The translations under genes were made by a program, and so were the position numbers. Of a DNA stretch of 64,000 nucleotides, positions 39,571-64,000 are shown piece by piece. Position 1 is the first letter of the stretch, and each line of letters starts with the position of its first letter. Source of the stretch: Diphasiastrum complanatum (taxonomy: Eukaryota; Streptophyta; Lycopodiopsida; Lycopodiales; Lycopodiaceae). The notes below the pieces were generated by a model. It was not told the DNA's origin. It saw only the letters and a program-made list of their open reading frames with translations, and ran no database searches. The stretch covers positions 64,345,370 through 64,409,369 of the forward strand of contig CM055096.1 in NCBI GenBank assembly GCA_029204225.1, in the 5' to 3' direction.

Positions 39571-39876
39571 CTAGCTTTCATTCAAATCCTAATATTTTTG
39601 GTTTTGTTTTCTTAGTTATTTTGAGATCTCTCAATGGAAATCTTCAAACCTGTTCTTACCAATAATGCAAGTTTGGTGTTACAAAAAACTTTTCATATCA
39701 ATCCTGGTTTTCCAAATCCAATGTCTTTGCTCACCTCCAAAAAAATTGCAGCCAATCTAGCCATTATGGCAATTGAACAAACTTAAGGACCTTAAAATGT
39801 GCAGATCCTTCACATACGTGTCATGTACTTATAGTACATCAGGCTTATAGTGCAATATAATATCCAGTGTAACCTT

Positions 39877-40367
39877 TGTTAGGCCCAAAAGGAGTTATTA
39901 GCCTTAAGAATAAGGTGGTTCTTTCTTTAGGCCCTCCAAAGTACTTAAATAAAGATAAGAGGCCAACAAGGGCCCAAAATAGACAATAGACTTTATAAAA
40001 TTTAACAAGGGCTAATTATCCCTCAAGATAAGTATGTTTAGTTAAGTTAGGGGATCGTCTATAAATAGACAAGGGACATCATTTTGAAGAATCTTTTGGC
40101 TCATTTGTAAAAATGAGAGCTTAGCTTCCTCTTTGCGAATGTGAGCCTTGGGAATAGAGCTTGCTAGGTCTCATGTGCTCAATGCACATGAATCTCATCC
40201 CCATTTTGTATTTATTTTCTTTCATCCCTCAATTTTATTGATGATTCCATGGAGCTCTATTTGTGACTTGTGTTTTATGGCTATATCAACATAAATGTTT
40301 TGTTATTCTCTTGATTGTGGCTTTACTTTCATTACTATTGCTATTTGATTGGGTTTGGCACATGACA
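39877..40367 (+). repeat. solo LTR, family D (copy 1)
   Basis: Runs TGTTAGGCCC to GGCACATGACA, 491 bp, and is closely matched by 57,199-57,671. A TATAAATAG box at about 40,052 sets plus orientation. No primer site or polypurine tract adjoins it, so it is a solo LTR. Matching 5-bp target duplications are not evident. Confidence 0.85.
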
Positions 40368-44389: not shown

Positions 44390-45859
44390 TTCCTCTCCCA
44401 TAAAAACTTCCTTCTATGGGAAAACACCAGGGAATTTAAGTCTCAAATCGTCGTCCTTCTCCCAGGTGTCCTCATCATCTGACTTACTTTTCCAACGAAT
44501 CAGATGTTCAGAAATCAAACGATTTCTCAGCTGATGACGTCGAGTATCCATGATCCTGTTTGGTTCATGGGGTACAAAAGCAGTCAAATCCTCCAATTGA
44601 TCTAATGCTTTCCCTAGCCACCTGCAACATTTCTTGCATATCATGCAAGAAATCCGCTGTTGCTTGTACCTTGAGACCTTTGAGTCCAACGGAGATAGGC
44701 GAACGAGGCTGAAAGTCGTACAAGAGCATAAAAGGACTAAAATAAGTGCCAGAATGCTTCATACTATTATATGTGATCTCACCCATTGGGAGGTACTTTT
44801 CCCAATCTGATTGTTGCTTGGAAACATATGCGCGAAGCATATCTTCCATCGACTGGTTGACACGTTCGGTCTGACCATCGGTTTCTAGGTGATCCGTAGA
44901 CGAAAGGCTTAAGGTAGTTTCCAGTCTCTCAAAGACTGCCAACCAAAATTTGCCAGTGAACTTGGAATCACGATCACTAACAATATCGTAAGGCAAACCA
45001 TACAACCTGAACAACTTTTCAATGAGGAGTTGAGCAAGTTCTGAAGCTTTGACAATGATTTTTGTTGGAATAAATTGCTCCATTTTGGTAAGCCTGTCAA
45101 CTACTACCCAAATGGCATCGTGATCCTTCCTAGACTTGGGAAGTCCAACCACAAAATCCATGGAAATACTTTCCCACTTCTTGTTGGGAATTTCCAACGG
45201 ATGTAACAGATTGAGTCTTTCCGCTTTGTTCACTTGGCATTGTTCACACTTTTGAACATAAGCCTTGACATGACCTTTCATTTTTGGCCAATAAAATTCT
45301 CTCTTAACAAGGTCAAGTGTCCTCCTGTATACCAGGGTGTCCCGCACTGGGGCTATCGTGGCACTCATGCAGGATTTGGGCCCTAATGTCTGCAATAGAA
45401 ACTTTTCCTCTACTGAAAAGTAACCATTCCGAATGGAATATTCATGAAGTATCTTCTCTTCACGAGACTTCTTGGAATCGTGCTTTCCAAGATTATTTCT
45501 CACAATAGAGCTTCCTACCAGGACTTCTTGCCAAATACGACGGTTCGACAAAGGTCTCGCAGAGAAAGATACAACTCGGATTGGAAACTAATTAACCTCT
45601 CCAATCCGGCTCAAAGCATCAACGACACAGTTTGACGTACCCCGACGGTACTTAATGTCGAATTTCGAACTCCTGTATGAGTTTCGACCAACAGGCCTTA
45701 CGACCCCTAAGGTCCGAGGCATCACAAATATACTTAAGAGACTTGTGATCCGTCATAACCATGAATTTAGATCCGTATGAATAATATCTCCAGATCTTTA
45801 ATACATGGATGACAGCAAAAAGTTCCTTCTCATAAGTAGAATGGATATCTACTTTGAGT
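44390..45859 (-). pseudogene. gypsy-A RNase H part, integrase and chromodomain
   Basis: RNase H C-terminal part: STYEKELFAVIHVLKIWRYY and TDHKSLKYICDASDL (45,652-45,859). Integrase (44,565-45,551): zinc-finger end CEQCQVNKAER, SMDFVVGLPKSRKDHDAIWV (Asp 1), IVSDRDSKFTGKFW (Asp 2), ETDGQTERVNQSMEDML (Glu). A C-terminal chromodomain (EHLIRWKSKSDDEDTWEK, about 44,450-44,510) marks it as a chromovirus, whose chromodomain guides insertion to marked chromatin. The frame shifts near 44,640. The upstream half of pol resumes at 56,380 after the copia-B insertion. Confidence 0.9.
45855..45859. other. left target-site duplication of copia-B (TGAGT)
   Basis: TGAGT here equals TGAGT at 56,380-56,384. Removing copia-B and one copy restores a continuous gypsy-A RNase H frame. 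Confidence 0.93.
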
Positions 45860-45979
45860 TGTAGGAATCCAGAATCAAGACTATTCATTAACACAAAGTA
45901 TTCTCAAAGAGAGTCATCTAACCATCTCTCTCTTCTCTTTGAGAATACTTTGTGTTAATGAATAGTCTTGATTCCTACA
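45860..45979 (+). repeat. copia-B 5' LTR: 120-bp palindromic U5-inverted-U5 structure
   Basis: The right part (about 45,910-45,979) equals the R/U5 end of the 3' LTR, apart from a 7-base deletion. The left arm (45,860-45,912) is the exact inverse of that same end, so the LTR begins TGTAGGAATCC, the complement of its own terminus GGATTCCTACA. The arms (53 and 46 bases) enclose a 21-base loop (45,913-45,933). U3, with the promoter, is absent; the 3' LTR is 383 bp. The flanking duplication TGAGT abuts this odd end, so it was used in integration. Confidence 0.95.
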
Positions 45980-45992
45980 TGGTATTAGAGCC
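45980..45992 (+). other. copia-B primer binding site
   Basis: TGGTATTAGAGCC directly follows the LTR end at 45,979; one base differs from the usual initiator tRNA-Met site. Confidence 0.9.
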
Positions 45993-46603: not shown

Positions 46604-47040
46604 ATGGCTAAAGAATCTGAATCTATAGGTTCTTTGTTCAATGAAGATAGGTTGGATGGAACTAATTTCTCCTTGTGGTGCTACATGATCAAAAACCTCC
46701 TTATTGCTAAAGGTTTGTTTGAAGTTGTAAGTGGTGATGAAGAGAGGCCACCTAGTTTGGCACCTACTACACCGTCAAGAGCTACTTCTTCAACATATGT
46801 GGAGGTGTCTTCCGAAGAACAAAAGAAGTGGGATCGACGTGACGCACAAGCACATTCGGTCATAGCGCTATCCGTGAAGAGATCAATCCTACCTCACATT
46901 CGATCATGCAAGACTTCCAAGAGTGCTTGGGAAGTACTTGCCAAGATGTTCCAAGTGAAGAATACGGTGAAAGTGCTTTTTCTACGTAATCAACTCTCAA
47001 CATTGAAGATGCAACAGGGTGATACGCTTTCAATCACTTA
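46604..47040 (+). pseudogene. copia-B gag, N-terminal part
   Basis: Starts MAKESESIGSLFNEDRLDGT, typical of UBN2 copia gag (LDGTNFSLW, KTSKSAWEVLAKMF, LRNQLSTLKMQQGD). A one-base loss near 47,030 (an A in a short A run) throws the frame into a stop at 47,039-47,041. The rest of gag continues in the next frame from 47,041. Confidence 0.9.
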
Positions 47041-48619
47041 ATGAAGATCAAAGATCTTCGTGAAGAGCTTCTTAGCATTGACGAAATTGTCGAGAACTCT
47101 CAATTTGTTTCAATTACTCTTAATTCACTTCCTCATTCCTATCTTCCATTTGTGTCTACTTTAAGCATATCTCTTAGGGGACAACAAATCTCCTTTGAAG
47201 AGCTTGTTGGCTTACTTCTCCAAGAAGAGCAAACAAGGATTAATTTTGGTGAACAAGAAAATCAAGCCTTCTTCACCAAAGGCAAAGGCAAGGGCAAGTG
47301 GAAAGGTAAGCCTTTTTCTTCCAAGGATCAAAAATCCAAGGAAGGCCAAGATCAAGGATCCAAACAGAAGGGTAAGTGCCGTTATTGTAAAAAGTTTGGG
47401 CATCACATAAAAGAATGTAGGAAGAAGCTTACTAAGGATAAAGCGAAAGGTATTGATACAAATACAACCATGATTTCATTAGAACAAAAGGAGAATGATT
47501 CTTTCAATGGTGATTTTGCTTTTGTCACTAACAATCTCATTTCTAATCAAAATGAGATTTCTAGCACTTATCGACTTGCTGGTTTTCCAGCAAAAAACAG
47601 CACTACTTCAGCTTTGCAGGTTGCTATTTTTTCTTCCATTGATTGGGTGATTGATAGTGGAGCTACACGCCATATGACTCACCATAGAGACGTCTTCACA
47701 AAGCTTATGAAAATCAAAGATGGAAGCAAGGTTGAAGGTGTTGACAACACCTCCTATCCAATTGAAGGCATTGGATCTATATCCCTCATTCTTCCCAATG
47801 GAGAAGAAAAGTACATTCGAAATGTACTTTATGTTCCTAAGATTAAGAAAAATCTCATTTCGGTCTCTACAATTATGATTGTAGAATTTAAAGAAGACAA
47901 ATGTCTTATAAAAGACCCAAAGAGATCACTTTTAATTGTTGCTTCGGGAACATTGCGAGGAGGTTTGTTTTTGTTGGATATTTATGAACCTAAAGCTTTG
48001 ACATCGTTTGGTCTTGTTGCTACTAATTCACATGCATTGGAGTTGGCTAAACTATGGCATGCGAGGTACGGGCACCTCAATTTTGGAAGTTTGAATATGT
48101 TGAAGAAATTCAACATGGTAGAAGGCATTCCAAATATGGAGCATCCCGAAGGACATGTATGCGAAGGATGCATACTTGCTATGATAGAAAATCAATTTGG
48201 GCATACTTTGAAGATACTACGTACCGACCGACGAGGGGAATACATTAAAAGTACGTTCGGCACGTTTCTTCAAAGCAAAGGCATTCTACATCAAATGACT
48301 ACACCTTACACACCGCAACAAAATGGTGTTGCCGAGAGAAAAAATCGCACAATCATGGAGATGGCTCGTTGCATGCTTAAGGCAAAGGGCGGTCCCCACA
48401 AGTTTTGGGCTGAAGCGGTTATTACGGCGGCATACATTAGTAATCGGTGTCCGACTAAAGCCTTGAAGATTTTGACTCCTTATGAAGTTTGGTATGGTAA
48501 GAAGCCATCGGTTTCTCACTTTCGCACTTTTGGTTGCACGACTTATGCGTTTATTCCCGATAAGCTAAGATCCAAACTAGATGATAAAGGAGTAAAATGC
48601 ATTTTTATGGGCTATAGTA
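47041..48619 (+). pseudogene. copia-B gag C-terminus, protease, internally deleted integrase
   Basis: Continues gag (SITLNSLPHSYLPFVSTL), zinc knuckle CRYCKKFGHHIKEC, protease DWVIDSGATRHMTH (catalytic DSG intact), gag-pre-integrase LWHARYGHLNFGSL and HVCEGCILA. Roughly 110 residues, including the first catalytic Asp, are then missing in frame. The sequence resumes at GHTLKILRTDRRGEY (Asp 2) and ends with NGVAERKNRTIMEMAR (Glu) and FMGYSS. There chromovirus-C is inserted (48,620), replacing the C-terminus with a chance LTR-encoded tail. Confidence 0.92.
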
Positions 48620-49067
48620 GTTATGGACTCGGCTCATTACATTCGCCATGTCCATTTACATTTACTTTACTTTATGCATAGGCAGGCTTTGGGCCCTTTT
48701 TTATTCATTATTTGACATTTAGACTATATGGTTGGCCTTGGGCCCTATTATTGACGTTTAGACCATATTATTGGCCTTGGGCCCTATGATTCACTATATC
48801 AGTTATTTGGTCATATTACTGAGAGTGGGGGCGTTCTTAGAGGGCGCACTATTTTCCCTCTCAGTTTGGCCCTAGCCACTGGAAGCTTCCTTTTAGGACT
48901 TCCTCTTGGCTATAAGTAGGGATTCTGTGTCATTTGTTACTTGGCTTATGAATGATCTCCTTCTTTAGTCTCTTTAAGCTTTCCCTCTCCTGCTTTCTAG
49001 GGTTAAGTCTTGCTTATGTGATGCTTTCATAGACTAAATCTAGATCAGCCGTGGCTACGTTCATAAC
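48620..49067 (+). repeat. chromovirus-C 5' LTR, 448 bp
   Basis: Matches 54,863-55,311 with roughly nine differences. Termini are GTTATG...CATAAC, not TG...CA. Internally, TTGGCCTTGGGCCCTAT is repeated twice. CTATAAGTAG (about 48,910) is a TATA-like box. Confidence 0.95.
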
Positions 49068-49068
49068 T

Positions 49069-49080
49069 TGGTATCAGAGC
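49069..49080 (+). other. chromovirus-C primer binding site
   Basis: TGGTATCAGAGC, an exact copy of the plant initiator tRNA-Met primer site, two bases after the LTR. Confidence 0.95.
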
Positions 49081-50130
49081 ACTTTTTTGAGCATCTCCAT
49101 TGAGCAGATTTTTCTCTCACAGGAGGGCGCCCATCTTCAGCTTGGATCTTCACCATTTTTCAGCCGGATCTTCACCATTTCTCCACACTTGTCTTGCAGA
49201 TTTTCACGACGGATCGGAGGAGGACAGGCGCCCACTTGCTGCCCATTTCTAGCGCCCTCTTGCTGGCTGCCTACTGCTGCATTTTCAGCCTTTTTCCTCC
49301 CCTATTTTGGGCGCCCTACTGCCTCCTATTTGCTGCCCTATTGGGCGCCCTCATGCTTGTTGACCAGCGCCCTACTGCTCCTTCCTTTGCTGAAAATTTC
49401 CGCTTTTTGCTGCCCCTATTCGCCACCTTCCATCAGCCACTCCTAGCGCCCTACCAACCCATCTTTTTGATCCAATTTTTTTTTTGCCGTTTACTACCTC
49501 TCTTGGACGCCCACACTCCACCATAGCTGGCGTCCTACATCCGCCTCAATTTCAGCTCATCCTCCTACACTGCTGTCTGTGTTCGCAACCCTACCCCGGA
49601 CAATACAAACACGCCTAGATGCTTAGAAAGCCACTCCCACCCAACTTCATCGCGCATCGGGATTGCTCCCCGTCTTTATCGCAAACTTTTTTTTACCCTT
49701 GAAGGGCGATCTCTGATTTTTCAGCCTTGTTTCCTCGCTGCCCATACCTCCTTTTTGTTATCACTTCTTTTCCTTGGCTGCTCCCTTTCCAGCCCCATAG
49801 TCCATTATTGTTTCCCATACTTTTACCCACCGTTTACTCCACGTTGTCAGGCCCTTAGCATCTTTTTTGGAGGCTGCCTGGTACCGCGACATATCGCCGC
49901 TATTTTTCAGCTCACTTCCGGTTGCGGTTACGAGGTATTTCTTACTTAGTTGTCCTTTCCGTTCATCTTACATCGCGAGTTCTATTGTGTCTTTTCATTG
50001 GCGTGCCTGTTGTGACGACTTATGTCCTCTCCTTCAGTTCGTCCAATTGTTTAACGCCAAATTGTCCTGAGTGGATGGAAAAGGAGAGATGCCAGCTGCT
50101 ACGTCAATATTCGCTTACTTTTTCTTCCTC
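49081..50130 (+). other. chromovirus-C leader with repeated GGGCGCCC palindromes
   Basis: About 1 kb of C/T-rich leader without a convincing ORF. GGGCGCCC occurs at 49,125-49,132, 49,309-49,316 and 49,343-49,350, with several partial copies (AGCGCCCT) around them. A run of T lies at 49,478-49,487 and another at 49,687-49,693. Confidence 0.7.
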
Positions 50131-52194
50131 ATGGCTAGCTCACCCACTACACCTGCGAGTCATTCCGGACCTTTAGATGAACAGTTTGCTGATATGCGTG
50201 ACTCTCTTACTCTCCTCAGTAGTCGTTTCGACCAAATGATGACCGGTTTTACCACTCTACAGACCGGCTTTGCCACTATGCAGTCACAGATTGATTCCTT
50301 ACAGCCACATGGACCTGGCAAAGCCCCTGTTTATTCATCATTTGGGTCTCCATTTGGACTTCCATCCTCGTCTACTTCCTTTGGCGGTGGGTCTCATTTT
50401 CCACCTAACCCACCACCCGGTTTTCCACGTCCTACAGCTCCTGAGTCACATTTTCCACGACATCTAGCTCTTGAGCCACATTTTGCTCGAGATTTTCGTG
50501 ATCGGGTACAGCTTGCCACCTATTCTGGTTCCTCTGACGGGAACTTGTTAGAGAATTGGTTTGCAAAGCTTGATACTTATTTTCAGATTTACCCTAAGAC
50601 TGATCCTCAGAAGATCCAGTTAGCCGCCTTACATTTAGGTGGACGTGCTGCCACTTGGTGGCGGGTCTACCGACTTGACCCTGATCGGGACGGTCTCCAG
50701 TTATGGCCTACCTTTCGTCATGATCTTCGTCATGCTATGATTGACCCTCAGTGGCTGAGCCGCCAGCGTGATATATTCCGTAGTCTTACTCAGACTGGTG
50801 ATCTTTCTTCCTATACAGATCAGTTTATGGACCTTTCCTACCTCTTTACAGATCTTCAGCCCACCGAGCTTATTTCTCGCTACATTGTTGGACTTCGTGG
50901 TGCTCTACGATACGATGTCTCTTCTTTCCGTCCACCCACACTTGTTGAGGCCATGTCCCTTGCTAGTACTTTACAGCATAAGTACCCTGATCCTGCTCCC
51001 TTTCGCTTTTCCCGACCCCGTCCATCTCTTTCACCTCTACCATCTCCGGCCCCATCTGCCCCATCCACTGTCGTCCCGACCTCTTCTCTTACTTCTCCCG
51101 CTCCTCGCCCTCCGCCTCCTCGTCCTGCTTTTGTCCGACGTTACACGTCTGCAGAGTTCGCTGACATTCAGCAGAAGCGTCTTTGCTTTCGTTGTAAGAG
51201 TCCTGACCACATTGCCCGTGATTGCCGCCAGCCCCTGCCTACTTCTACTGTTGTTTTCTACCATGAGGGCACTACCCCAGATGAGTCCGATATCTACATT
51301 CATATATCTGATGAGCCTGATCTATCTCCTGAGCCTTCTACTGATTTACTTCCTGCTACTTGCCATGCTCAGCTTGCTTATGCTACCTGGACAGGGTGCC
51401 CCGGTCCTCGCTCCATTCGGCTACGTGTGCGCATTACTGGTCGTGAGTATATTGCTTTAGTTGATACCGGCAACACTCATTCCTTTATCAGCAGTTATGT
51501 TCTCAGCCGGATACGCGCTTCACCTATTCCTGCTCCACAGCCTCTCACAGTCGAGGTTGCCAGTTCTCACTCATTTCCTAGTTCTCAGATGTTTCAGGGA
51601 TTATCCTACCGCATTGGTGATTTTTTTGGACAGGCAGATCTTTATATCATTCCTCTGGAGCGCTATGACCTTATCCTTGGTGCTGATTGGTTTGCTTCAT
51701 TGGGAGCGGTTACTTTGGACCTGGCTCAGCAGACATTGACATTTGTTCATGATGCAGTGACCCACTCACTTGCTGGTATTGATTCTCAGGCAGATTTCCA
51801 GCTGATCAGCGGGAAGCAGTTTATCCGCAGCCTACCTAAGGCTCATTGTGCAGCTTTATTATGTGTTCAGCGTGCTGCAGCAGATTCTCCAGTGACTACC
51901 TCTCCTCCAGCAGCTGTTCCTCAGGTGATCTCTAACTTATTACATCAGTATGCATTTGTCTTTTCAGAACCTACGACGCTACCACCATTACGTGATGTGA
52001 ACCACCATATTGATTTGCGTCCTGGTTCTGCTCCTCCCTCCCGGCCTCCTTACCGTATGTCTAAGTTTGAGCGTGATGAGGTTGAGCTTCAGATTACTGC
52101 TTTACTAGATCAGGGCCTTATTGTTCCTAGTCACAGTCCTTTTGGTGCCCCTGTTCTCCTTGTCAGTAAGAAAAATTTATCGTGCCCTCAATAA
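50131..52194 (+). pseudogene. chromovirus-C gag, protease and RT N-terminus
   Basis: I prefer the start MASSPTTPASHSG (50,131) over one 20 codons upstream, because the upstream part is unlike gag. Gag core: ENWFAKLDTYFQIYPKTD, LGGRAATWWRVY, DLSSYTDQFMDLSYLF. A Pro/Ser-rich linker leads to the knuckle CFRCKSPDHIARDC, then the protease active site ALVDTGNTHSFIS and LILGADWF. RT begins PPYRMSKFERDEVELQITAL and VPSHSPFGAPVLLVSKK. There a deletion of about 30 bases at 52,170 removes the conserved K-D-G-x-W-R segment and shifts the frame to a stop at 52,192-52,194. Confidence 0.93.
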
Positions 52195-53167
52195 GTTGAC
52201 CATCTGTAGCCAGTATCCTATTCCTCAAATGGATGATCTCTTTGACCAGTTAGGCACCTCTCATCTTTTCTCTAAGATAGACTTACGTTCCGGCTATCAC
52301 CAGATTAGGATGCATCCTTCGGACGAACACAAGACTGCGTTTCGTACCCATCTTGGTTTGTATGAGTTTCGTGTTCTTCCTTTTGGTGTTACTAATGGTC
52401 CACCTACGTTCCAGAATGTGATGAATAACATCATGCGTCCTCTCCTTGGTTGTTATGTTTTAGTTTATTTTGATGATATTCTTGTTTTTAGTAAGACTCT
52501 TGATGAGCATGTGTTACATCTTTCATCTGTTTTTCAATTGCTTGTTCATCACCAGTTGTTTGCTAAACTTTCTAAATGTTCCTTTGCTGTTGTTGAGATT
52601 GAGTTTTTAGGATTTCTCATTTGTGATGGTCGTATTCGTTTGGACCCTCATATGGTTCGGGCAATCGCTGATTGGCCTGTTCCCACAGATGTCCACCATG
52701 TTCGTATGTTTCTTGGTCTTGCTACTCACCTTCGTCGTCCTGTTCCTCACTTTGCCACTGTGGCTGCCCCTCTTCATGCCCTTTTGAAGAAGTCTAGTGC
52801 TTTTGTTTGGACTTCTGATTCTCAGTTCGCCTTTGACACTCTTCGTCGTGCTGTTGTGGAGGCCTCTGTCTTGTGTTTACCACAGTTTGATCAGAAATTT
52901 ATTGTTGAGACCGATGCTAGTAATGTTGGTTTGGGTGCCTTGCTTCGTCAGTCTCAGTGTATTATTGCTTATGAGTCGCATCGTTTACGCTCTTATGAGC
53001 AACGTTATTCTGTCCATGAGAAAGAGCTTCTTGACATTATCTATGCTCTTAAGAAGTGGCGCCATTACCTGTACCGTATTCCTTTTGATATCATTACTGA
53101 TCATCAGTCCTTACGTTATCTCTTCTCCCAGCGTGATCTTAGTGATCGTCAGTTTCGTTGGTTGTAG
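52172..53167 (+). pseudogene. chromovirus-C reverse transcriptase and RNase H
   Basis: Resumes in a new frame at RALNKLTICSQYPIPQMDD and carries FSKIDLRSGYHQI, FRVLPFGVTNGPPTFQNVM and the catalytic YFDDILVF. RNase H follows: FIVETDASNVGLGALL, YSVHEKELLDIIYALKKW, TDHQSLRYLFSQRDLS. The frame ends at TAG (53,165-53,167), immediately followed in frame by FLQSFDFSILY, so the stop is internal. Apart from the missing segment at the start and this stop, all catalytic residues are present. Confidence 0.93.
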
Positions 53168-54817
53168 TTTTTACAATCTTTTGATTTTTCTATTTTGTAT
53201 CGTCCTGGTCGTGCTAACACTGCTGCTGACGCATTGTCTAGACTTCCTGCTTTATTGAATACCCTTGTTGCCATGATCCCTTCCTGGTTTGATGATCTTC
53301 CATCTGCTTATCTTACATGTTCTGATTTTCGTGATGTTTATAGTTCTGCACCACCTATGTCGTCTTCACCTCATCAGGCTTATTCCATTGTTGACCACCG
53401 TCTTTATCATTATGGTTCTCTTTGTATTCCTAGTTCTTTGGGTATCCGTTCTCAGTTGTTGTCGGATGCTCATTCGTCCCCAGTTGGGGGTCATTTTGGA
53501 TTTCAGAAGTCTTATGCTCGTCTTAAGGATCATTTCTATTGGCCATCCCTTAGGAAAGAGCTTGTTGTACTTATTCGTACCTGTCCTTTCTGCTTACGTA
53601 ATAAGTACTCCCGTGCTAAGTCCGCTGGTTTGCTTCAGAGTTGGCCTATTCCTCACCACCAGTGGACTGATATTTCTATGGACTTCATCATTGGCCTTCC
53701 CCGCACCCGTCGTGGTCACGATTCATGTATGGTGGTAGTTGACAGGTTCTCGAAACAGGCACATTTCATACTCGTCCGCAGTACTATCACAGCAGAGCAG
53801 TGTGCACGCTTGTTCCTTTCAGAGATATTTCGCCTACATGGGTTTCCTCGTACTATCCTTTCTGATCGGGATAGTAAGTTTACATCATTGTTCTGGACAG
53901 AGCTTATGCGTATATTGGATGTACAGCTTTTTATGGGGTTTGCTTATCATTCTACTTCTGATGGGCAGTCTGAGGTCCTTAACAGGATCCTTGAGAATTA
54001 TTTGCGCCATTTTGTTACTCCTTCAGGGAAGGATTGGGATCAGCACTTATGTTTGGCAGAGTATAGCTATAACAGCTCTGTTAGTACCAGCACCGACGTT
54101 GCACCATCTTTATTATCTCATGGTTATGCACCTCTTTTACCTGGTATTCCTCTTCCTCTCGAGGATACACCTGTGACACTGTCTTCATTTCTATCAGGTG
54201 CTCGCGAGCTTATTCTCCAGGCCAGTTCCCATTTGCAGCAGGTCCAGCAGCGTTATCAGGCTTCAGTTGATCGTCATCGACGTCATGTTGAGTTTCATGT
54301 TGGTGATATGGTATATCTACGCCTACGGTTTGCACGTCATCATTTTCTTCAGGGCCATGCTTCTACTGAGAAGCTTGCACCACGTTATTATGGGCCTTAT
54401 TGTATATTGGAGGTTCTTAGTCCAGTTACATATCGTCTTCAGCTTCCTGCTTCCACACATGCCTGTGATATATTCCATGTCAGTTTATTACGTGCTGCTA
54501 TTGAGGATGATGCTCCTCGTGATGCTGAGTTTCCTACTGCACCGGATCTCTTTCCTTTATTACCTGCTGCTATCCTTCAGGTGCGTTTGCATCATAGTCG
54601 ACGCCGCCGGCAGATTCAGTTCCTAGTCTAGTGGGATGGTCGTCCTGTTGAGGAGGCCACATGGGAGCCTATTGATGTCTTTTATCATACACCGTCACTT
54701 GTGGATCAGGCTCGTGCTCTTGCCGCACTTGTTGATTCCTCTACATCAGCTGTTGCTCCAGTTGTTACTACACCAGATGCTGTTCTAGTTGATCCTCCAG
54801 GGCTTGCTGTTACTTGA
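53168..54817 (+). pseudogene. chromovirus-C integrase with chromodomain
   Basis: Same frame as the preceding RNase H. The tether ANTAADALSRLPAL leads to the integrase: HHCC finger (H in SPVGGHFGFQ to CPFCLRNKYS), ISMDFIIGLPRTRRGHDS (Asp 1), LSDRDSKFTSLFWTEL (Asp 2), YHSTSDGQSEVLNRIL (Glu). The GPY/F region APRYYGPYCILEVLSPVTYR follows. A TAG at 54,629-54,631 precedes WDGRPVEEATWEPIDVFYHT, clearly a chromodomain, so the ORF originally ran to the TGA at 54,815-54,817. Chromodomains direct integration to specific chromatin. Confidence 0.93.
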
Positions 54818-54853
54818 TCCAGTCCTTTATGGCAGTTGGGTCTTATTTTTGTG

Positions 54854-54862
54854 TCGGGGAGA
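54854..54862 (+). other. chromovirus-C polypurine tract
   Basis: A purine-rich GGGGAGA stretch directly precedes the 3' LTR at 54,863 and would prime plus-strand DNA synthesis. Confidence 0.85.
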
Positions 54863-55311
54863 GTTATGGACTCGGCTCATTACATTCGCCATGTCCATTT
54901 ACATTTACTTTACTTTATGCATAGGCAGGCTTTGGGCCCTTTTTTATTCATTATTTGACATTTAGACTATATGGTTGGCCTTGGGCCCTATTATTGACAT
55001 TTAGACCATATTATTGGCCTTGGGCCCTATGATTCACTATATTGGTTATTTGGTCATATTACTGAGAGTGGGGGCCTTCTTGGAGGGCGCACTATTTTTC
55101 CTCTCAGTTTGGCCCTAGCCACTGGAAGCTTCCTTTTAGGGCTTCCTCTTGGCTATAAGTAGGGATTCTGTGTCATTTGTTACTTGGCTTATGATATGAT
55201 CTCCTTCTTTAGTCTCTTTAAGCTTTCTCTCTCCTGCTTTCTAGGGTTAAGTCTTGCTTATGTGATGCTTTCATAGACTAAATCTAGATCAGCCGTGGCT
55301 ACGTTCATAAC
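54863..55311 (+). repeat. chromovirus-C 3' LTR, 449 bp
   Basis: Near-identical to 48,620-49,067. After it, TATAGTAGTGAAAG continues the copia-B integrase codons. Confidence 0.95.
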
Positions 55312-55953
55312 TATAGTAGTGAAAGTAAAGGCTATAGATTGTTTAATGTGGATACTAACAAAATCATAGTGAGTCGTGATGTTCATTTTGATGAGAAGAA
55401 CTCCTATGATCTTACGCCCATTCATGTCAGGGGACATCCCCCAAGATGACTATGTTGAAGTGTTTCCAGATTTGGTATCACCATCTAATGTTGAAGAGGA
55501 GGGACTGCCATCATCCTCTAATGGACAGCCCATTGATTCTTCAAGCGAACAGCCCATAATTCATCAAGAGGAGCATAAATCAAGCAAGAAGCAGCCCATC
55601 GTTGCTACATCCTCAAGTGAAGCAGAATATAGAGCAACGTTTTCAGCCACTACGGAGTGTATATGGCTGAGACAATTACTTGTCGATATGAAGCATGGCC
55701 AGCCCTCAGCTACTCTCCTATTTACGGATAGTCAAAGTGTGCACGAAATCCAGTATTTCATGCAAGAACAAAGCATATCGAGATCCACTATCACTTTGTT
55801 CGGGAGAGGCTTCATAATGGCGACATCACGCTTGAATATTGTCCCACGGAGGATAATATTGCAGATGTGTTCACTAAGGCATTGCCTAGAGTTCGATTTG
55901 AAGCTCTTTGTGAAGCTTTAAATTTAAAGCAACATGCTGATTTTCTTACTTAG
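55312..55953 (+). pseudogene. copia-B integrase tail joined to RNase H, RT deleted
   Basis: GYRLFNVDTNKIIVSRDVHF is the usual copia linker after integrase. After a broken stretch the sequence passes directly to RNase H (KKQPIVATSSSEAEYRA, CIWLRQLLVDM, LFTDSQSVHEI), with no RT between. After a frameshift near 55,750 the C-terminus LEYCPTEDNIADVFTKALPR runs to a proper stop at 55,951-55,953. The element is therefore RT-less. Confidence 0.9.
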
Positions 55954-55988
55954 TGAATACATGTCATTTCTACATGTCATTTTCATTT

Positions 55989-55996
55989 AAGGAGGG
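55989..55996 (+). other. copia-B polypurine tract
   Basis: AAGGAGGG immediately before the LTR start TGTTAGAATAA. Confidence 0.9.
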
Positions 55997-56379
55997 TGTT
56001 AGAATAATAAATGTAAATGATGTAGAAGCCATAGGTTACTATGACCCAAAAGGTCGAGGGACTCGTGGGTCCACTAGGGGCCTATACATGTGAATTAAGT
56101 ACCTAACTTGTTATTTGGGGTACGTAATTATTTTATGTAACTTATGGTAGCTAGATAGCCATTAGTCAAGTTATTGGACAGCCAATAGTCATGAAGGTAG
56201 ATAGCCATCTTGGACTACTTATATGTAGCCATTCATTTGTATGAGACACACTTTTATTAAGCAATCTATTGTTCATATTGGCTGTCCACAAGTTTCTACA
56301 AGAGAGTCATCTAACCATCTCTCTCTTCTCTTTGAGAATACTTTGTGTTAATGAATAGTCTTGATTCTGGATTCCTACA
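55997..56379 (+). repeat. copia-B 3' LTR, intact, 383 bp
   Basis: TGTTAGAATA to GGATTCCTACA, followed by the duplication TGAGT (56,380-56,384). Its last 80 bases match the right half of the 5' LTR; its U3 has no counterpart there. Confidence 0.95.
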
Positions 56380-57198
56380 TGAGTTGGGTCCAACTTCTTG
56401 CTTTCGAAAGCCACAGGTTTACCATCCTGGTAAAAGACTGCACCCACCGCATAGTCACTAGCATCCGTTTCCACCAGGAAAGGTCTGCTAGGGTCCACTA
56501 TGTGTAAGATAGGGGCTGTAGACACTAGCATCTTCAAAGCTTCAAAGCTTTGATTAAGTTCATTGGTCCAAGTAACATGTGGACTGATTTTCGAACGCCT
56601 TCTTGCTTTCTTCTTATTACCCTTTTTAGTTTTTCTTTTGGCTTTCTTCACTCCCTTAAGAAGATTCGTTAGAGGCAATGCAATTAAGGCATAGTCGTTA
56701 ATGAATTTATGGAAAAACTTTGTGAAACCCAAAAAGGATTTAACTTCCCTCATGGTCTTTAGGATAGGCCAATCACAAACTTTTTGGACCTTATCATAAT
56801 CGATCTCAAGACCTCGATCGGAAACGATATGTCCCAAGTACTTGAGTCTTGTCTGAAAGAACTCACACTTAGACTCCTTAGCATAAAGCTTTAACTGCCT
56901 TAAAATATCTAAGATCGTACGCAAATGTGCCTCATGCTCCTCAAGAGTCCTACTATAATTCAAGATGTCATCCAAAAATACCATGAGAAACTTCCCTAGA
57001 TATGGACGTTCATCATCTGTTGGAAGGTTGCCAGGGCATTAGTTAGACCACTGGGTAAAACTAAAAATTCGTAATGGCCATGCCTAGAACGAAAACCAGT
57101 TTTGGAAACATCCCCCTTGTTGACATTAAGGCATTGATGTAGGTCTTGTTTTGGACTTTGATAGTTGAAGTGAGACTGGAAATGATGTTTTTGAACTT
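56380..57198 (-). pseudogene. gypsy-A reverse transcriptase and start of RNase H
   Basis: Upstream half of gypsy-A pol: GHYEFLVLPSGLTNALATFQ, the active-site region normally YxDDIL read here as MVFLDDILNYSRTLEEHEAH, KCEFFQTRLKYLGHIVSDRG, then a Lys-rich insertion (KKAKRKTKKGNKKKARRRSK) between RT and RNase H, and FLVETDASDYAVGAVFYQDG. It stops at the copia-B target site and continues at 45,859. The first RT blocks are degenerate near 57,130-57,198, where a solo LTR intrudes. Confidence 0.9.
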
Positions 57199-57671
57199 TG
57201 TTAGGCCCAAAAGGAGCCATTAGCCTTAAAAATAAGGCAGCTCCCTCTTTAGGCCCTCCAAAGTACTTAAATAAGGATAATAGGTCAACAAGGGCCCAAA
57301 GTAGACTTAATAAGAGGGCTAATTATCCCTCAAGATAGTTATGTCCAGTTAAGTTAGGGGATTATCTATAAGTAGGCAAGAGATATCATTTTGAAGAATC
57401 TTTTGGCATTTGCAAATGAGATAGCTTAGCTTCCTCTTTGTGAATAAGAGCCTTGAGATTAGAGCTTGCTAGGTCTCATGTGCCCAATCCACATGAATCC
57501 CATCCCCAATTGTATTGATTTCCTTCCATCTCTCAATTCTATTGATGATTCCATGGAGCTCTATTTGTGACTTGTGTTTTATGGCTATATCTACATGAAT
57601 GTTTTGTTATTCTCTTGATTGTGGCTTTAGTTTCATTACTATTGCTATTTGATTGGGTTTGGCACGTGACA
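57199..57671 (+). repeat. solo LTR, family D (copy 2)
   Basis: TGTTAGGCCC to GGCACGTGACA, 473 bp, matching 39,877-40,367. It interrupts gypsy-A RT. The gypsy does not visibly resume on its right and no target duplication is evident, so deletion or recombination at the site is likely. Confidence 0.85.
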
Positions 57672-58577: not shown

Positions 58578-58579
<2 letters not shown>

Positions 58580-58580
<1 letters not shown>

Positions 58581-58812
58581 TACAATTCGGTTTGGTTGTG
58601 CTTTCATTGTCAAGAGACAAAAATGTAATTTCTTCTACATCAAAATGATATTTTGTAATGTCATTATAGGATTATGCTATTAAATCTATCCCTAGGAGAG
58701 TACAATTCGGTTTGGTTGTGCTTTCATTGTCAAGAGACAAAAATGTATTTTATTCTACATCAAAATGATAGTTTGTAATGTCATTATAGGATTATACTAT
58801 TAAATCTATCTG
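58580..58812 (+). repeat. 120-bp tandem duplication
   Basis: GTACAATTCGGTTTGGTTGT starts at 58,580 and again at 58,700; the copies run through TTGTAATGTCATTATAGGATTA to TTAAATCTATC with only a handful of differences, so the duplication is recent. Confidence 0.95.
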
Positions 58813-63540: not shown

Positions 63541-64000
63541 TCACAGAAGGTTAACTCAGAGCAAATGTCAAAAAATCAAGAAAAAAGTGTATTTTTTTGG
63601 GTGTTTTTTGCTATTTTTGAAAGTTTTCTATCAAATCCTAGAGAGATAACCTTCTCCAAGATGAAATTAGCCTTCTTTAATACAGATTAAGCTAAATTCA
63701 GGTAGGCAAAGGTTATTTCCCAGGGGATAGAGAGAAAATACAAATTTTATGGCTTTTTTTGCTATTTCTGGCAGTTTTCTCTCAGATCCTAGAGAGAGAA
63801 CGTTCATCGAGATGATAGTAGCCTTTTCTGATACAGATTAGCTAAATCTAGATGGGCAAAGGTTATTTCCCAGGGGATGGAGAGAAAATACAAATTTCAT
63901 GGCTTTTTTGCTATTTTTGGAAGTTTTCTCTGAGATCCTAGAGAGAGAACGTTCGACGAGCTGATAGTAGCCTCTTTTGATACGGGTTAAGCTAAATCCA
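63541..64000. repeat. 150-bp tandem repeat array, open at the window edge
   Basis: GCTAAATYYA recurs at 63,691, 63,841 and 63,991, exactly 150 apart. The units share GGCAAAGGTTATTTCCCAGG, GAGAGAAAATACAAATTT, TTTTTTGCTATTT and CCTAGAGAGAGAACG. The unit at 63,541-63,690 matches well only in its right half, and weak echoes reach back to about 63,220. Frames across it are artefacts. Confidence 0.88.

What the first reader, a model, noticed from the sequence alone, without database searches (positions are those of the whole stretch)
45860..45979. Copia element integrated with a palindromic U5/inverted-U5 LTR
Copia-B's 5' LTR is not a truncated copy of its 383-bp 3' LTR. Its left 53 bases are the exact inverse of the U5 end, so both sides of this LTR end in the same U5 terminus around a 21-base loop. 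The 5-bp duplication TGAGT abuts this end and the intact 3' LTR end, which means integrase used an inverted U5 end in place of the normal U3 end. A plausible route is snap-back self-priming of minus-strand strong-stop DNA at the AGAGAG/CTCTCT stretches bordering the loop, followed by copying to the end of U5. The copy has no U3 promoter at its 5' end. The right arm lacks 7 bases (between two GATT repeats) that the left arm and 3' LTR keep, so that deletion came later. Such an origin for an LTR is not one I know as a described class.
Basis: partly seen in the sequence, partly recalled or inferred. Interest (0 to 1): 0.88.

Follow-up and report, generated by a model that had tools for sequence, protein, structure and literature searches.

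The report
Retrotransposon integrated by two U5 ends
A mobile element in a fern-like plant genome has, in place of its normal left end, a short mirror-image copy of its own right end, and it seems to have been inserted in that form after a copying accident, so it is a rare misassembled copy rather than a new kind of element.

Summary
Positions 45860-45912 are an exact 53-nt inverse of the 3' LTR's U5 end, joined over a 6-nt microhomology (AAGAGA) to normal-sense R/U5 ending at the primer-binding site; TGAGT flanks both ends. So this Copia element has a U5 terminus at each end and no U3 at its 5' side. The own genome holds the junction twice, but the second copy lies in a duplicate of the same locus with the same TSD: one insertion. 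A second, independent insertion of the family (TSD CCTCA) also starts with inverted U5, at a different joint (CACAA), but ends in an inverted U3 terminus. Inverted-U5 left ends thus formed at least twice; the U5/U5 form is seen once. Best reading: a minus-strand 3' end joined minus-strand strong-stop DNA by microhomology during reverse transcription, and integrase used the tRNA-defined U5 terminus. The 7-nt loss need not be later. New variant of known aberrant reverse transcription; no sign of propagation.

The parts
45855..45859 (.). target-site duplication TGAGT, left
45860..45912 (-). inverted U5 terminus (53 nt) used as the left integrase end
   Evidence: exact reverse complement of 56327-56379
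45907..45912 (.). 6-nt microhomology AAGAGA at the joint between inverted U5 and normal-sense R/U5
   Evidence: 0.2% of simulated random joints within this LTR share 6 nt or more
45907..45979 (+). normal-sense R/U5 part of the 5' LTR (loop 45913-45933, right arm 45934-45979), with 7 nt missing near its end
45980..45992 (+). primer-binding site TGGTATTAGAGCC (initiator-tRNA type; the type is recalled, no tRNA was tested)
   Evidence: sequence; 7 of 11 family 5' LTRs are followed by TGGTATCAGAGCC
46604..48618 (+). Copia gag and part of integrase, in two overlapping reading frames
   Evidence: Pfam Retrotran_gag_2, Pol_BBD, gag_pre-integrs, SH3_retrovirus; rve at 30.6 bits lies just under its cut-off of 32.6
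48619..55312 (+). younger gypsy element nested in the Copia element (TSD ATAGT at 48614-48618 / 55313-55317; LTRs 98% alike)
   Evidence: family copy L029 shows the uninterrupted site
55313..55996 (+). remaining 3' interior: linker, end of RNase H, polypurine tract (recalled motif) just before the LTR; the RT region is missing
   Evidence: translation; where this copy has 6 nt, element 2 has about 1.4 kb and family locus L029 about 650 nt
55997..56379 (+). 3' LTR, 383 nt, TG...CA, 60 nt shorter than the usual 443-nt family LTR
56380..56384 (.). target-site duplication TGAGT, right

Best explanation
A Copia cDNA was completed with a U5 terminus at both ends and integrated by integrase. Shown: the anatomy, the exact U5 terminus next to the TSD, the 6-nt joint, and a second independent family insertion with an inverted-U5 left end at another joint. 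Inferred: in the particle, the 3' end of the long minus strand (already extended through the primer-binding site into U5 and R) annealed through TCTCTT/AAGAGA to a minus-strand strong-stop DNA that had not been transferred, or to the minus strand's own 5' end. Reverse transcriptase copied that strand to its 5' end, which the tRNA primer had set exactly at the U5 terminus. If the strong-stop DNA was also extended on the minus strand, it became the start of a full plus strand, which would give a blunt U5 end on the left without normal plus-strand transfer. In the second element the same thing happened on the left. On the right, PPT-primed plus strong-stop DNA joined a plus-strand end over CATTTA, giving an inverted U3 terminus. 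Confidence: U5/U5-ended integration about 0.85; this joining route rather than cis snap-back about 0.6.
For: TSD abuts the inverted arm and the 3' LTR; the joined flanks read as the target gypsy's RNase H region, apart from one frame shift. Inverted U5 (53 nt) plus normal-sense LTR from position 310, with one 7-nt slip, reproduces all 120 nt; without the slip the distance is 7; a hairpin used as plus strand has distance 23. The left arm equals the 3' LTR 53 of 53 while the right arm lacks 7 nt, as expected if the left arm comes straight from strong-stop DNA. Microhomology: 6 nt here, 5 and 6 nt in element 2; of simulated random joints within the family LTR 0.8% reach 5 nt and 0.3% reach 6 (this null does not cover element 2's right joint, which joins interior to LTR). 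The LTR carries a rare G-to-A change that lengthens the possible joint from 5 to 6 nt; the 3' LTR has it and the 5' LTR's joint reads so too. The pattern with it occurs at 5 places in the genome, two being this 3' LTR and its duplicate. Element 2: C15:8914406-8919502, TSD CCTCA, different joints. In the lone minus strand the predicted cis hairpin pairs a different register from the one used, and the strand is no more folded than shuffles (z 0.16 and -0.23).
Against: The U5/U5 form is a single insertion; its second copy is a duplicate of the locus. Element 2 can also be read as an ordinary element in the opposite orientation with its interior inverted, so it supports joining of strands but not U5/U5 integration. 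A cis copy of the right arm followed by a later 7-nt loss gives the same 120 nt. Start of R, tRNA use and strand intermediates are inferred, not measured. Cis and trans joining give the same final sequence. The left arm would need a truncated or trimmed strong-stop DNA.
Confidence: 0.6

Rival explanations
1. Cis snap-back: minus strong-stop DNA folds on itself at CTCTCTT, copies its U5 to the tRNA-set end, and this hairpin is later joined by ligation to the end of the long minus strand.
For: Products of HIV-1 strong-stop DNA that react with a probe for plus-strand U5 are reported in vitro and ascribed to inter- or intra-annealing (PMC4668388, passages read). Such a hairpin, taken as the minus strand, has the observed loop order.
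Against: Needs an extra ligation; the hairpin used as plus strand is excluded by loop orientation; the predicted cis register differs; the arm that lacks 7 nt needs a later loss.
Confidence: 0.25
2. Post-integration event: a normal 5' LTR was rebuilt by fold-back repair, or two U5-ended cDNAs integrated together and the middle was lost.
For: Fold-back inversions are known in yeast (PMC7467729, search listing with abstract start only). Other inversions exist in this family: locus L027 holds a complete inverted LTR.
Against: A host event would have to end the inverted arm exactly at the U5 terminus and exactly at the TSD. Two U5-ended cDNAs would need loss of a whole element with breakpoints close together in the LTR.
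Confidence: 0.1
3. Assembly or sequencing artefact (inverted chimera).
For: Palindromes are a usual source of such artefacts (recalled); no reads could be inspected.
Against: An artefact would not be expected to stop at the exact U5 end beside a TSD. The same sequence is assembled at C5:38.23 Mb in a copy that differs elsewhere, including a loss of about 1.65 kb inside the nested gypsy.
Confidence: 0.05

Closest known systems
Self-priming of minus-strand strong-stop DNA in HIV-1 in vitro (PMC4668388, passages seen; it cites Guo et al. 1997)
   Same: U5 copied back from strong-stop DNA at short complementarities
   Different: described as abortive products; here such an end was integrated with a TSD, and loop orientation argues against direct use of the hairpin as plus strand
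Template-switched complex LTR insertions in Triticeae (Sabot and Schulman 2007, PMC1950507, passages seen)
   Same: aberrant template switching inferred from integrated plant Copia elements with TSDs
   Different: fusions with three LTRs; 'inverted' and 'palindrom' do not occur in its text
HIV-1 proviruses with asymmetric LTRs or inversions (PMC9278108, passages seen)
   Same: unequal LTRs ascribed to misaligned strand transfer; some proviruses with internal inversions
   Different: the passages read describe deletions, mainly of the 3' LTR; none describes an inverted U5 end
DIRS-type elements with inverted LTRs (recalled; PMC5633606 seen only in a search listing)
   Same: inverted repeats at the ends
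   Different: heritable design with another recombinase (recalled); here one malformed Copia copy with a TSD

Membership tests
Ty1/Copia LTR retrotransposon | Copia-type gag and integrase, TG...CA LTR, tRNA primer site, 5-bp TSD | tested here: met
   (rve core just under its cut-off; other Copia-type domains above theirs; tRNA match recalled)
Ty1/Copia LTR retrotransposon | two direct LTRs with U3-R-U5 each | tested here: not met
   the 5' LTR lacks U3 and starts with inverted U5
Ty1/Copia LTR retrotransposon | reverse transcriptase gene | tested here: not met
   no RT match in the three Copia ORFs searched; relatives have 0.65-1.4 kb where this copy has 6 nt
Integrase-mediated insertion | equal 5-bp duplications directly at both termini | tested here: met
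   TGAGT; CCTCA for element 2
Heritable element with inverted-U5 ends (propagating form) | several insertions with the same junction and distinct TSDs | tested here: not met
   the junction occurs twice with up to one mismatch, both with the same TSD and flanks
Self-primed strong-stop product | loop in the order of a hairpin used as plus strand | tested here: not met
Self-primed strong-stop product | intermediate DNA seen | not testable with these tools
   no cDNA data

The most novel reading that the evidence does not exclude
Plant LTR retrotransposons have a recurrent second route to an integrable cDNA. Strong-stop DNAs whose 5' ends are set by tRNA or PPT join other cDNA 3' ends by 5-6 nt microhomology, so plus-strand transfer is bypassed and integrase accepts U5/U5 or inverted U5/U3 ends. 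Such copies would be missed by programs that require two direct LTRs.
Probability: 0.3. Interest if true: 0.72.

Novelty: new variant of a known kind. Interest (0 to 1): 0.56.

Why it matters
It looks like a fossil of a reverse-transcription intermediate that is usually described as abortive. If the reading is right, integrase can carry such a cDNA into a chromosome with a U5 terminus at each end and a proper duplication. The second family copy, with inverted U5 and inverted U3 ends, shows that inverted strong-stop ends are not a one-off. It gives a searchable signature (inverted U5 within about 150 nt of U5 at a TSD) that would measure how often strand transfer fails in nature.

Tried and rejected
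Rejected: simple 5' truncation of the LTR (distance 30); strong-stop hairpin used as plus strand; propagating form; RNA-family explanation (no Rfam match at gathering score in the window). L027, where the inverted U5 arm also matched, turned out to hold a full inverted LTR with its primer site and is a different rearrangement.

Led nowhere: exact pattern scan of viral contigs (0 matches); search for the 3' LTR of the other insertion lacking 7 nt (none within the 6001 nt fetched); protein search with the 3' interior ORF (1 hit); passages of PMC10986323, PMC12789967 and PMC10085805, none on inverted U5 ends. Palindromes with gaps 58-88 gave 3 places, gaps 89-119 gave 0, gaps 120-150 gave 0 (exact 15-nt arms only, so diverged cases are missed). 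Gap 27-57 and the count of normal 5' LTRs did not complete (58, 90, 137, 141, 143, 145). Ten paper searches were answered (two searches found no paper; one search listed 8 of 3316 and one search listed 25 of 48). Judged by titles, abstract starts and the passages opened, none describes an LTR built of U5 and inverted U5; the library lacks most subscription journals.

Full report
The observation. The first 53 bases of the Copia element's 5' LTR (45860-45912) are the exact reverse complement of the last 53 bases of its 3' LTR. From 45907 the sequence is normal-sense LTR from position 304 on, with a 6-nt overlap AAGAGA that fits both parts. It then runs to the U5 end and a primer-binding site at 45980, 7 nt short of the 3' LTR's version. 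TGAGT flanks both ends; 5 nt match and 6 do not. Joining the flanks gives a gypsy RNase H region on the minus strand that runs on across the join, with a one-base frame change. The single-strand fold of the 120 nt has z = -15.8, with 0 of 200 shuffles as stable.

Surroundings. The target appears to be an old gypsy element on the minus strand (LTRs about 87% alike at 39874-40367 and 57196-57671; RT/RNase H and integrase pieces on either side). A younger gypsy (48619-55312, LTRs 98% alike, TSD ATAGT) sits inside the Copia element; family copy L029 shows that site uninterrupted. The Copia element therefore existed before the nested gypsy. Its RT region is missing. Protein relatives point to a fern or similar plant: (120 of 1485 hits listed) the first four hits are unnamed and the next eleven are all Adiantum nelumboides. 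The plant itself is not named to us.

The genome. The 3' LTR search gave 75 matches, with 40 of 1488 candidates scored, so counts are lower bounds. Complete LTRs were measured in 24 of the 28 loci L003-L030: 21 of 443 nt, 2 of 423, 1 of 444, each ending GATTCTGGATTCCTACA or a one-base variant, so with the 7 nt (L003 and L023 measured on a neighbouring LTR). Eleven of the 24 are followed by a primer site (10 begin TGGTAT, 1 TGATAT); none of these 11 is preceded by the polypurine tract, so they are ordinary 5' LTRs. They stand for 8 distinct flanks, as L004, L005 and L026 share one and L007 and L010 another; L009 begins TA instead of TG. The 60 nt missing from the window's 3' LTR are also missing from the LTR matched in L003. 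The chimeric joint occurs at two places with up to one mismatch. The second, at C5:38.23 Mb, has the same TSD and flanks within a duplicated stretch that spans at least window 14196-78351, with interruptions, at 98.8-100% identity, and ends at a run of N. It may be a real duplication or a misplaced haplotype. It is not a second insertion, but it is a second assembly of the palindrome.

A second event. A search for U5 palindromes (exact 15-nt arms 58-88 nt apart) found these two places and one more, C15:8914418-8914518. That element runs from C15:8914406 to 8919502 (5097 nt) and is flanked by CCTCA on both sides. Its left end is 37 nt of inverted U5 joined over CACAA to normal-sense R/U5 and the primer site. 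Its right end is the interior up to ...TTTTCATTTA joined over CATTTA to 17 nt of inverted U3 terminus, overlap included. It differs from the window element in TSD, contig, both joints and right end. It can be viewed as an element in the opposite orientation whose interior is inverted. So inverted-U5 left ends arose at least twice in this family, while U5 at both ends is seen once. Searches with gaps 89-119 and 120-150 found none.

How it probably arose. LTR cDNA ends are set by primers: the tRNA sets the U5 end (5' end of minus strong-stop DNA) and the polypurine tract sets the U3 end (established knowledge of retroviral reverse transcription; outlined in PMC4668388, passages read). All four termini of the two odd elements are such exact ends, and the three odd joints inside them have 5-6 nt of microhomology. 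The order of the parts requires the long minus strand, after PBS, U5 and part of R, to continue into a plus-sense U5 copied from a minus-sense strand that ends exactly at U5. A strong-stop DNA or the minus strand's own 5' end is such a template. A hairpin of strong-stop DNA used as the plus strand would give the loop in the other orientation. Copying the right arm as it stands now cannot give the left arm's 7 extra nt. Two histories fit: the right arm was a slipped copy from the start, or it was copied and lost 7 nt later. The same 7-nt slip between GATTC repeats occurs in another insertion with a normal 5' LTR (L047-L049, one insertion assembled three times), so it carries no date. The element's LTR has a G-to-A change that lengthens the complementarity from 5 to 6 nt. 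It is in none of the family LTR ends printed, and the pattern CTACAAGAGAGTCATCTAACC occurs at 5 places in the genome, two of them this 3' LTR and its duplicate. In family LTR coordinates the two switch points are 351 and 364 (304 plus the 60 nt missing here). They are close together and may lie near the start of R; this is inference, as no transcript start is known. The lone minus strand is no more folded than its shuffles (z 0.16 for 86 nt, -0.23 for 130 nt), so nothing marks it as a strong self-primer.

What is known. Products of HIV-1 strong-stop DNA that carry plus-sense U5 are described in vitro (PMC4668388, passages). Template-switched plant Copia insertions with TSDs are described in PMC1950507 (passages), and asymmetric LTRs and inversions in HIV-1 proviruses in PMC9278108 (passages). 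Ten answered searches of the paper library showed no LTR made of U5 and inverted U5 in titles, abstract starts or passages opened. I therefore call it a new variant of a known kind, namely aberrant strand transfer that was integrated.

Limits. No reads were seen. Pattern searches used exact or nearly exact arms, and two planned counts did not complete. Cis and trans joining cannot be told apart from the final sequence. With one U5/U5 insertion, frequency cannot be stated.

Noticed in passing
L053 and L054 (G000:C15:8914406-8919502): Family element with inverted U5 at its left end and inverted U3 at its right end, TSD CCTCA, joints CACAA and CATTTA.
   Followed up: yes
L027 (G000:C6:52764303-52767625): A complete inverted LTR with primer site and 5' leader joined directly to plus-sense leader sequence of the same family, as might be expected of autointegration.
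   Followed up: partly
G000:C5:38185000-38263622 against the window: Near-identical duplicate of much of the window about 26 Mb away on the same contig, identity 98.8% on the left and 99.5-100% around the element, ending at a run of N: segmental duplication or misplaced haplotype.
   Followed up: partly
L047, L048, L049: The same 7-nt loss at the end of U5 in another family insertion with a normal 5' LTR, next to a long CT repeat; assembled three times.
   Followed up: partly
L003 (G000:C19:36780030-36783405): The LTR matched here also lacks the 60-nt U3 stretch and seems to lie between 3' interior and 5' leader sequence, as in a tandem with a shared LTR.
   Followed up: no
55313-55996 and L003, L007, L010, L014, L017, L021, L026: Several family copies carry different internal deletions; the window copy lacks its RT region.
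   Followed up: partly
58579-58810 and 63604-64000: Tandem arrays with 120-bp and 149-bp units, the first next to a (GA)n run.
   Followed up: no
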